Shown: positions 19,812-22,095 of the stretch, one piece after another | How positions within the stretch are numbered: position 1 is the first letter of the stretch | Layout: each line of letters begins with the position of its first letter | Assembly: GCF_001418575.1 (NCBI RefSeq) | Contig: NZ_LIQR01000019.1 | Coordinates: 1-34,801, forward strand | Length of the DNA: 34,801 nucleotides | Source: Peterkaempfera griseoplana | Lineage (GTDB): Bacteria > Actinomycetota > Actinomycetes > Streptomycetales > Streptomycetaceae | Direction: 5' to 3' | Translations under genes and position numbers: made by a program | The notes under the pieces: model-generated | Database searches by the model: none | What the model saw: only the letters and a program-made list of their open reading frames with translations | Told to the model about the DNA's origin: nothing

Positions 19812-19827
19812 TGTGACCCATGTCACA
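19812..19827. promoter_or_regulatory. TGTGA-N6-TCACA palindrome containing TGTCACA
   Basis: TGTGA (19812-19816) and TCACA (19823-19827) form the exact Crp-type palindrome, 73 bp before the flavoprotein ATG. The same bases include TGTCACA (19821-19827), which I recall as the -35 motif of ECF41 sigma factors. No clear CGTC -10 is found 16-17 bp downstream; AATCC and CCGAG are there instead. Which of the two readings is right is open. Confidence 0.55.
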
Positions 19828-19900
19828 CGGAGTTCCTGTCAGCAATCCGAGTGCTGTCCCGCTCAATCACCGAAGGCAGGCGAACCGACAGGAGCTACTC

Positions 19901-21118
19901 ATGAAGCACCGCATCGTCGTTCTCGGCGCCGGCTATGCCGGGGCCTACGTGGCCGGGAACCTGGCCCGCCGGCTGTCCCCGGTGGACACCGAGATCACCG
20001 TGGTCAACGCCGAGCCGGACTTCGTCCAGCGGTTGCGGCTGCACCAGCTCGCGGCGGGCCGGCAGATCGAGGCCCCGCAGCTCGCCGACGTCTTCGCGGG
20101 CACAGGGATACGGCTGCGCCTGGCCCGTGTCACCGCCGTCGACGCAGGGCGACAGGTCGTCGCCGTGGCCGACGCCGAGGGCGGCGGTGAACTCGGCTAC
20201 GACACACTGCTCTATGCGCTCGGCAGCCACGGGGACGAAGGCGGCGTTCCAGGCGTGGCCGAGTACGCCTTCGACGTCGCCGCCCGGCCCTCGGCGCTGC
20301 GCCTGCGCGAGCGTCTGGACAGCCTGGGCGGGCGGGGCGAAGGCGGCAGCGTACTGGTCGTCGGCGACGGGCTGACCGGCATCGAGACCGCCACCGAGAT
20401 CGCCGAATCGCGGCCCGGACTGTCGGTGACCCTCATCGCCCGCGGCGAGCTGGGCGCCCGGCTCTCCGCCGGAGCCCGCGACCACCTGCGCCAGGCCTGC
20501 GACCGGCTGGGCGTCACGGTCCTGGAGCACACCGTCGTCGAGACCGTCGAAGCGACGCGGGTGCTGTGCGCCGGCGGCACCGCCGTGGCGTCCGACGCGA
20601 CCGTGTGGACGGCCGGGTTCGCGGTCAGCCCCATCGCCGCCGCCGGCGGGCTGGAGGTCACCGAGAGCGGCCGGATCGTCGTCGATCGGACCATGCGGTC
20701 GGTGTCGCACCCGAACGTCTACGCCGTCGGCGACAGCGCCTACGCCGTCGGTGACAACGGCCGGCCGCTGCCGATGTCCTGCGCCTCGGCCGGCTACACG
20801 GGCATGCAGGCGATCGCCGCGATCGTGGGACGTCTGACCGGCCGCAAGGTCTCCCACGCCAAGCTGGAGTACATCGGCAATCACATCAGCCTCGGGCGAC
20901 GGGACGGGATCCTGCAGATGGTCGGTGACGATGCGCAGGCGAAGCCGAACTACATGGGTGGCCGGAAGGCCGCGCGGTTCAAGGCGGGCATCCTCAGGAT
21001 GTCGCTGTGGACCACCTCTCACCCGACCTTCTGCCTGCCCAGGCGCAAGCACCGCCTGGCCGCCAATGGCCCCATTCCCACAGCGCCGGATGTGTCCGCC
21101 GAGAAGGTGGTCGCGTAG
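19901..21118 (+). CDS. NDH-2-like FAD/NAD(P)-dependent oxidoreductase
   Basis: The 405-residue protein starts at ATG 19901 behind AGGAG. It has the two-dinucleotide-domain fold of pyridine nucleotide-disulphide oxidoreductases of the type II NADH dehydrogenase group: FAD motif KHRIVVLGAGYAGAYVAGNL (G9-x-G11-x-x-G14), NAD(P) motif VLVVGDGLTGIETATEIAE (about residues 151-169) and the second FAD contact HPNVYAVGDSAYAVGDNG (about 275-295). The C-terminal region (FKAGILRMSLWTTSHPTFCL) is amphipathic, so it may sit on the membrane and pass electrons from NADH to quinone. There is no CxxC redox motif. A 17-nt gap leads to the ECF41-like sigma gene, so the two form an operon. Confidence 0.92.
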   Translation: MKHRIVVLGAGYAGAYVAGNLARRLSPVDTEITVVNAEPDFVQRLRLHQLAAGRQIEAPQLADVFAGTGIRLRLARVTAVDAGRQVVAVADAEGGGELGYDTLLYALGSHGDEGGVPGVAEYAFDVAARPSALRLRERLDSLGGRGEGGSVLVVGDGLTGIETATEIAESRPGLSVTLIARGELGARLSAGARDHLRQACDRLGVTVLEHTVVETVEATRVLCAGGTAVASDATVWTAGFAVSPIAAAGGLEVTESGRIVVDRTMRSVSHPNVYAVGDSAYAVGDNGRPLPMSCASAGYTGMQAIAAIVGRLTGRKVSHAKLEYIGNHISLGRRDGILQMVGDDAQAKPNYMGGRKAARFKAGILRMSLWTTSHPTFCLPRRKHRLAANGPIPTAPDVSAEKVVA

Positions 21119-21135
21119 CCGCAAGGGTGGCCCGC

Positions 21136-22095
21136 GTGGACAGCACCGTCACTGATCGCTTCGACACCGGCCGGTTCGAGGCCGGCCGGAGCCGGCTGGC
21201 CTCGCTGGCGTACCGGCTACTGGGCTCCGCCACCGATGCCGAGGACGCCGTGCAGGACGCGTTCCTGCACTGGCAGGCCGCCGACCGGCAGCGCATCAGG
21301 GTGCCGGAAGCATGGCTGACCAAGGTCGTCACCAACCTGTGCCTGGACCGGCTTCGCTCGGCACAAGCCCGCCGCGAGCACACGGTCGGCGCCTGGCTGC
21401 CCGAACCACTTCTCGACGGCGACCCGATGCTCGGCCCGGCCGAGACGTTCGAGCAACGCGAATCGGTCTCCCTGGCCGTGCTGACCCTCATGGAGCGCCT
21501 GTCCCCCCTCGAGCGGGCCGTCTACGTGCTGCGCGAAGTGTTCTCCTACAGCCACGCCGAGATCGCCGAGATCCTGGACATCACGGAGTCCGCCAGCCAA
21601 CAGCACCTCCACCGGGCCCGGCGCCGCGTCATAGCCGCACGCCGCAGCGGCGCCGAAGTCGACCCCGCGTCCGCCCGCAGGGTGGTCGAGGAATTCCTTG
21701 CCGCCGCCTCCTCGGGCCGCACCGAACGGCTGGTGGCGCTGCTCACCGACGACGCGACCGCGGTCTCCGACTCCAATGTCGCCGGTCTGGCCGAGAAGCT
21801 GCTGCGGTACGACACTCCACAGCGCATCGCCGCCGTCGTACGGGCCGGTTTCAAGCCCACGGCCGCGAAACGGCGATTCGCCGGTGGCGCACCCGCCGTC
21901 CACTACGCGCTCGTCAACGGCGGCCCCGCCGTCCTCTTCGTGCTCGGCGACCAGGTCGTCGGCTCCGTGACGTTCGACATCGCCAAGGGCAGGATCGCGA
22001 CCCTGCGCGGCATCGCCGCCCCCATCCGCCTTACCCGCCTCACCGAAGCCTGGCGGCAGCACGGACAGGGCACGCCGCTCACCACGCCGTGGTGA
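21136..22095 (+). CDS. ECF41-like RNA polymerase sigma factor with C-terminal SnoaL-like domain
   Basis: The 319-residue protein starts at GTG 21136, with AAGGG 8 nt upstream; GTG 21127 is possible. Residues 15-75 are sigma region 2 (SRLASLAYRLLGSATDAEDA, then VQDAFLHWQ). The linker has TVGAWLPEPL (87-92), the conserved WLPEP motif of ECF41 factors. Region 4 is residues 118-168 (RLSPLERAVYVLREVFSYSH, AEIAEILDITESASQQHLHR). Residues 178-305 are the fused NTF2/SnoaL-like domain that in ECF41 proteins replaces an anti-sigma factor. Two motifs known there are altered: DGGG is SDSN (211-214) and NPDKL is APIRL (295-299). ECF41 genes usually sit next to an oxidoreductase, decarboxylase or epimerase gene; here it is the flavoprotein upstream. 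Confidence 0.93.
   Translation: MDSTVTDRFDTGRFEAGRSRLASLAYRLLGSATDAEDAVQDAFLHWQAADRQRIRVPEAWLTKVVTNLCLDRLRSAQARREHTVGAWLPEPLLDGDPMLGPAETFEQRESVSLAVLTLMERLSPLERAVYVLREVFSYSHAEIAEILDITESASQQHLHRARRRVIAARRSGAEVDPASARRVVEEFLAAASSGRTERLVALLTDDATAVSDSNVAGLAEKLLRYDTPQRIAAVVRAGFKPTAAKRRFAGGAPAVHYALVNGGPAVLFVLGDQVVGSVTFDIAKGRIATLRGIAAPIRLTRLTEAWRQHGQGTPLTTPW

What the first reader, a model, noticed from the sequence alone, without database searches (positions are those of the whole stretch)
19812..22095. Flavoprotein and ECF41-like sigma operon with a dual-reading control site
An NDH-2-like oxidoreductase and an ECF41-like sigma factor are 17 nt apart. The region in front holds TGTGA-N6-TCACA, an exact Crp-type palindrome, whose right half contains TGTCACA, which I recall as the ECF41 -35 motif. 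If the second reading is right, the sigma factor activates its own operon; if the first, a Crp protein gates it. A -10 of CGTC type is not clear. No anti-sigma gene is present, as expected for the fused SnoaL-like domain.
Basis: partly seen in the sequence, partly recalled or inferred. Interest (0 to 1): 0.65.

Follow-up and report, generated by a model that had tools for sequence, protein, structure and literature searches.

The report
Crp-type site on ECF sigma promoter
A flavoenzyme gene and its own sigma-factor gene in an actinobacterium share one promoter that carries, always at the same distance, a sigma-factor recognition sequence and a Crp-type regulator site, which suggests that transcription needs both an alternative sigma factor and a global metabolic regulator.

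Summary
In detail: an NDH-2-like flavoprotein gene (19901-21118) and an ECF41-like sigma gene (21136-22095) lie 17 nt apart behind an exact TGTGA-N6-TCACA palindrome (19812-19827). The "dual reading" of that site does not hold. In 78 upstream regions of this operon from several actinobacterial genera, the TGTCACA inside the palindrome is kept in only 3. A different element is almost invariant: TGTCAG (76/78), with CG(C/T)TC 16 nt after its seventh base (75/78). In the window these are TGTCAGC (19837-19843) and CGCT (19860-19863): an ECF41-type promoter with an altered -35, just downstream of the palindrome. The palindrome is conserved separately, starting exactly 25 nt before TGTCAG in 73/78, and in 18-19 of 20 loci picked by protein alone, including a paralogous flavoprotein clade. 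Canonical TGTCACA-N16-CGTC promoters mostly lack the palindrome. The genome encodes one clear Crp, whose recognition segment equals that of M. tuberculosis CRP. Best reading: sigma autoregulation plus a Crp-family activator at fixed spacing (an AND gate). Crp binding and the sign of its effect are inferred. The sigma is ECF41-like but lacks two motifs that most paralogues keep.

The parts
19812..19827 (.).
   Evidence: At least 8/10 matches exactly 25 nt before TGTCAG in 73/78 upstream regions; shuffled control mean 0.01, maximum 1. 10 exact copies in the genome against 0 in the control. Fits GTG(N)6GNCAC, quoted for Streptomyces Crp in PMC10033298.
19837..19843 (+). probable -35 element of the ECF41-type promoter, TGTCAGC
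   Evidence: TGTCAG invariant in 76/78 upstream regions; 18 of 20 loci chosen by protein only also have TGTCAG here.
19844..19859 (+). 16-nt spacer ending GCTGTCC
   Evidence: The 16-nt spacing equals the published ECF41 spacing (PMC3426412); several canonical ECF41-type sites in related genomes end their spacer in GCTGTCT before CGTC.
19860..19865 (+). probable -10 element, CGCT within CGCTCA
   Evidence: CG(C/T)TC in 75/78; GGTTCA in the paralogous flavoprotein clade.
19890..19894 (+). probable ribosome-binding site AGGAG
   Evidence: Sequence; GACAGGAGC is common to nearly all orthologues.
19901..21118 (+). NDH-2-like FAD/NAD(P)H oxidoreductase, 405 aa
   Evidence: Pyr_redox_2; nearest solved relatives YjlD (9pxk, E 2.5e-33) and NDH-2 (4nwz, E 9e-25).
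21136..22095 (+). ECF41-like sigma factor with C-terminal extension, 319 aa, GTG start
   Evidence: Sigma70_r2 and r4_2; SigX4/SigJ models below their cut-offs; SigJ structure 5xe7 E 2.2e-40.
21586..21624 (+). sigma region 4.2 recognition segment ESASQQHLHRARR
   Evidence: A(S)QQ in this clade and in the C563 paralogue, both with a TGTCAG promoter; A-x-RQ in the paralogues whose promoter is TGTCAC.

Best explanation
The operon is transcribed from an ECF41-type promoter (TGTCAGC 19837-19843, N16, CGCT 19860-19863; start expected near 19870, inferred) by RNA polymerase carrying the sigma factor that the operon itself encodes, giving positive autoregulation. Centred 17 bp before that -35, at about -50 from the expected start, is a binding site for a Crp-family protein, most likely the genome's single clear Crp. 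Its constant distance from the -35 suggests that the bound protein touches the ECF holoenzyme and helps it, so that full expression needs both an active sigma and Crp: an AND gate that ties an NADH-oxidising flavoprotein to a global metabolic signal. Shown here: the genes, both DNA elements, their conservation and fixed spacing, and the presence of Crp. Inferred: the transcription start, recognition by this sigma, binding by Crp, and activation rather than repression.
For: 78 upstream regions: TGTCAG 76/78, CG(C/T)TC at the right place 75/78, palindrome of at least 8/10 exactly 25 nt before TGTCAG in 73/78 with almost none at other offsets; DNA upstream of the palindrome is near random. 20 loci chosen by protein only: 18 have the palindrome at exactly that offset, 19 counting G031. 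A paralogous pair in the same genome (C563, flavoprotein 55% and sigma 57% identical) has its own exact palindrome with different inner bases, and TGTCAGG, at the same spacing. GTGA-N6-TCACA-N9-TGTCA occurs in 106 of 198 genomes of the order, while the reversed control has 2 hits in all; 20 of 30 loci inspected lie before this kind of flavoprotein, two directly before ECF41-like sigma genes and at least one before a CMD gene. Recognition segment ASQQ goes with TGTCAG and A-x-RQ with TGTCAC among paralogues. Gene order flavoprotein-sigma with the promoter before the first gene is the commonest COE arrangement of ECF41 (97 of 107 such loci, PMC3426412). One protein over the HTH_Crp_2 cut-off in the genome; it matches M. 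tuberculosis CRP over its full length (E 1e-85) with an identical ASRETVNKALADFA segment.
Against: No transcription start, binding or mutant data. The position near -50 is neither the classic class I nor class II Crp position. Another protein of the Crp/FNR family or an unrelated one could own the palindrome. One half-site is relaxed in each clade. Canonical ECF41 promoters do without the palindrome (at least 8/10 at -25 in 2 of 67), so it is not needed by ECF41 holoenzymes in general. The sigma lacks two motifs that most of its paralogues keep, so its regulation may differ.
Confidence: 0.55

Rival explanations
1. Same promoter and sigma autoregulation, but the palindrome is an operator at which Crp (or another factor) represses the ECF promoter.
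For: The palindrome ends 9 bp before the -35, close enough to hinder polymerase. Streptomyces Crp has hundreds of targets (393 by ChIP-chip, cited in PMC10033298).
Against: A simple occluding repressor needs no exact spacing, yet the offset is the same in 73/78 loci and in a paralogous clade. Most canonical ECF41 promoters have no such operator.
Confidence: 0.2
2. The palindrome is bound by a protein other than Crp, for instance another Crp/FNR-family or redox regulator.
For: The inner bases are conserved within clades (CCCA(C/T)G in one, GTGCT in the other), more than generic Crp sites require. The operon encodes a redox enzyme.
Against: Only one protein passes the HTH_Crp_2 cut-off in this genome, and its recognition segment equals that of M. 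tuberculosis CRP. The site fits both the E. coli-type consensus and the Streptomyces consensus.
Confidence: 0.2
3. One reading: TGTCACA at 19821-19827 is the ECF41 -35, overlapping the Crp half-site.
For: TGTCACA is the published ECF41 -35 (PMC3426412) and is present letter for letter.
Against: Kept in 3 of 78 upstream regions, and the matching -10 position reads AATC, not CGTC; a better and near-invariant promoter lies 16 bp downstream.
Confidence: 0.03
4. Conservation reflects only recent common descent, and neither element is functional.
For: All sequences compared are related actinobacterial loci.
Against: DNA just upstream of the palindrome is close to random in the same loci (0.1-0.4 bits per column against well over 1 in the elements), and a paralogous clade keeps the elements with different inner bases.
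Confidence: 0.02

Closest known systems
ECF41 sigma factors with COE target operons (Wecke et al. 2012, PMC3426412)
   Same: Sigma with C-terminal extension and WLPEP linker, no anti-sigma gene, neighbouring oxidoreductase transcribed first in the same operon, promoter before it with a TGTCA-type -35 and a 16-bp spacer.
   Different: The -35 is TGTCAG(C/G) instead of TGTCACA and the -10 CGCT instead of CGTC; a Crp-type palindrome sits at fixed distance before it; the sigma lacks DGGG(K/R) and NP(D/E)KL, which most paralogues in the same genome have. The words Crp, palindrome and activator do not occur in that paper.
SigJ of M. tuberculosis (5xe7)
   Same: Full-length relative: phmmer E 2.2e-40 over residues 10-216; also a top hit of the low-confidence model.
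   Different: C-terminal part too diverged to align by sequence beyond residue 216 in that search.
Actinobacterial Crp / GlxR sites (TGTGA-N6-TCACA; GTG(N)6GNCAC in Streptomyces)
   Same: The palindrome fits both patterns; the genome has a Crp with the same recognition segment as M. tuberculosis CRP.
   Different: Here the site is tied to an ECF-type promoter at a constant 9-bp gap from the -35. I found no report of that combination in the papers searched.

Membership tests
ECF41 | sigma regions 2 and 4 only, plus a C-terminal extension of about 100 aa or more | tested here: met
   Pfam regions 2 (16-77) and 4 (113-164), then about 155 further residues
ECF41 | WLPEP motif between regions 2 and 4 | tested here: met
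   GAWLPEPLL in the window and nearly all orthologues
ECF41 | COE gene (here Pyr_redox_2) next to the sigma, no anti-sigma gene | tested here: met
ECF41 | -35 TGTCACA | tested here: not met
ECF41 | 16 +/- 1 bp spacer | tested here: met
   16 bp between TGTCAGC and CGCT
ECF41 | -10 CGTC | tested here: not met
   CGCT, CGTT or GGTT instead
ECF41 | DGGG(K/R) and NP(D/E)KL motifs of the extension (motif names from memory; checked against paralogues) | tested here: not met
   DGAGL and GIAAPxRL in 81 orthologues; nine of 14 own paralogues keep each motif
SigJ / SigX4 models of NCBIfam | score above the curated cut-off | tested here: not met
   TIGR02957 274.6 of 323; NF007214 256.5 of 271
SnoaL-like extension | SnoaL fold of the extension | tested here: inconclusive
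   No Pfam hit; model with pLDDT 59; Foldseek ranks SigG1 and SigJ first, over the whole chain, but TM-scores are about 0.2
Crp site | match to TGTGA-N6-TCACA and GTG(N)6GNCAC | tested here: met
Crp site | a Crp protein with the matching recognition helix in the genome | tested here: met
Crp site | bound by Crp | not testable with these tools
   needs EMSA or ChIP

The most novel reading that the evidence does not exclude
A family of actinobacterial promoters in which Crp activates an ECF41-type holoenzyme from a rigid position 9 bp before the -35, so that a self-encoded sigma with an on-board regulatory domain and a global cyclic-nucleotide regulator are both needed; with a sigma clade that has altered its -35 specificity and lost two hallmark motifs of the extension.
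Probability: 0.45. Interest if true: 0.7.

Novelty: new variant of a known kind. Interest (0 to 1): 0.55.

Why it matters
ECF41 sigma factors are widespread and have no anti-sigma factor; what switches them on is unknown. A conserved activator site at fixed distance from their promoter would offer one missing input, link an NADH-oxidising flavoprotein to carbon or cyclic-nucleotide signalling, and give a simple, testable case of an activator working with an ECF holoenzyme.

Tried and rejected
(1) TGTCACA at 19821 as the -35: rejected by conservation. (2) That all ECF41 promoters of the class carry the Crp-type site: tested on 67 TGTCACA-N16-CGTC sites in 40 genomes (not filtered for true ECF41 promoters, so chance matches are included); only 2 have at least 8/10 at -25, against 0-1 at other offsets, so at most a minority do. 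(3) Spacing distribution across the class with a variable gap: outside the window's family the peak at 9 is weak and the list was cut, so I do not rely on it. (4) Structure of the extension: model too poor. (6) The 92-residue query begins with 30 residues of the C563 flavoprotein, and the rest was typed approximately, not copied; it matched the C563 protein at 84%. It served only to pick loci without regard to DNA motifs. (7) In one search the G031 site lay outside the stretch my script scored; its match is listed.

Full report
What is there. The window holds a two-gene operon: an NDH-2-like flavoprotein (19901-21118) and, 17 nt on, an ECF41-like sigma factor (21136-22095). The flavoprotein's nearest solved relatives are YjlD and a type II NADH dehydrogenase. 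The sigma has regions 2 and 4, the WLPEP linker motif of ECF41 and a C-terminal extension of about 155 residues. Upstream is an exact TGTGA-N6-TCACA palindrome at 19812-19827.

Comparison with relatives. A scan of genome contigs gave 80 relatives of the sigma; 77 have the flavoprotein upstream on the same strand, in most cases directly next to the sigma gene. Aligned upstream DNA of these 77 and the window shows two separate conserved elements. The first is the palindrome, with at least 8 of 10 specified bases exactly 25 nt before the second element in 73 of 78; shuffling gives 0.01 on average. The second is CCTGTCAG(G/C), then 16 nt after its seventh TGTCAG-base a CG(C/T)TCA: TGTCAG in 76/78, CG(C/T)TC in 75/78. 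DNA upstream of the palindrome is nearly random in the same set, so the two elements are under selection.

Which -35. The published ECF41 promoter is TGTCACA-N16-CGTC with a 16 +/- 1 spacer (PMC3426412). TGTCAGC-N16-CGCT at 19837-19863 has the same layout; several canonical sites end their spacer in GCTGTCTCGTC, much as the window has GCTGTCCCGCTC. The promoter is therefore downstream of the palindrome. Its full pattern, with this spacing, occurs once in the genome (the second match there has a longer gap and a different context).

Independent support. The same genome has a paralogous pair on contig C563 (flavoprotein 55%, sigma 57% identical), whose flavoprotein gene is preceded by TGTGAGGTGCTTCACA, 9 bp, and CCTGTCAGG, that is, the same layout with different inner bases. 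A third pair on C793 keeps a half-site at the same distance from TGTCACG. Twenty flavoprotein loci chosen by protein only show the palindrome at the exact offset in 18, 19 with G031. GTGA-N6-TCACA-N9-TGTCA is found in 106 of 198 genomes of the order, against 2 control hits. Of 30 such loci inspected, 20 precede this kind of flavoprotein; two lie directly before ECF41-like sigma genes and at least one before a carboxymuconolactone decarboxylase gene.

Limits of the pattern. Among 67 TGTCACA-N16-CGTC sites from 40 genomes of the class, only 2 have a good palindrome at -25. The Crp-type site is thus a mark of the flavoprotein subset, not of ECF41 promoters at large.

Who binds. The genome has one protein above the HTH_Crp_2 cut-off. 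It aligns with M. tuberculosis CRP over its whole length (E 1e-85) and has the same ASRETVNKALADFA segment. The site fits GTG(N)6GNCAC, quoted for Streptomyces Crp (PMC10033298). One of the ten exact palindromes of the genome lies 88 nt before an ORF that looks like nuoA (named by eye from its sequence). That Crp binds here is likely but not shown.

Who transcribes. In the operon's own sigma and in the C563 paralogue the recognition helix of region 4.2 reads ASQQ, and both have TGTCAG promoters; the paralogues with TGTCAC promoters read A-x-RQ. This is what one expects if each sigma reads its own promoter, though it may be a single evolutionary event.

Membership. The sigma is ECF41-like by architecture, context and spacing, but the -35 and -10 letters differ, two extension motifs kept by most paralogues are missing in 81 orthologues, and the SigX4 and SigJ models stay below their cut-offs. 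I call it a divergent ECF41-like clade, not a strict member.

Mechanism. The best reading is positive autoregulation by the sigma together with activation by Crp from a rigid site about 50 bp before the expected start. The fixed spacing favours contact with polymerase over simple occlusion. The start site, the binding protein and the sign of regulation remain to be shown.

Noticed in passing
G000:C563 (L082): Paralogous sigma (57%) and flavoprotein (55%) pair in the order sigma-flavoprotein, with an exact palindrome and TGTCAGG promoter between the genes; this sigma keeps DGGGK and NPDKL.
   Followed up: yes
L085 1240-1330 (G000:C668): Two divergent TGTCACA-N16-CGTC promoters share one palindrome-like site (8/10) placed 9 bp from each -35. 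The sigma frame there contains one TGA.
   Followed up: partly
L102 (G000:C205:573-588): Exact TGTGA-N6-TCACA palindrome 88 nt before an ORF that looks like nuoA, suggesting that the same regulator also acts on NADH dehydrogenase I.
   Followed up: no
L053 and similar loci, upstream of the flavoprotein: In one clade the -10 region and the ribosome-binding region form an inverted repeat (GTCTCGTTC ... GAACGAGAC); the C563-type clade has GGTTC ... GAACC. Could be an operator over the start site.
   Followed up: no
L012, L021, L039 and others: An extra ORF of about 350 aa with a hydrophobic N-terminal stretch lies between flavoprotein and sigma in some Streptomyces.
   Followed up: no
window 21766-21793 (sigma residues about 211-219): The window's sigma reads SDSNVAGL where nearly all orthologues read SDGAGL: a two-residue insertion private to this genome in the sample.
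   Followed up: partly
G000:C412:51498-51527: GTGACATAGGTCACA-N10-TGTCA near another ECF41-like sigma gene on the other strand; the gap is 10, not 9.
   Followed up: no
L119, L121, L124: Palindrome-N9-TGTCACA followed by an ORF of about 462 aa resembling an MFS transporter in another family of the order; the -10 is not of ECF41 type.
   Followed up: no
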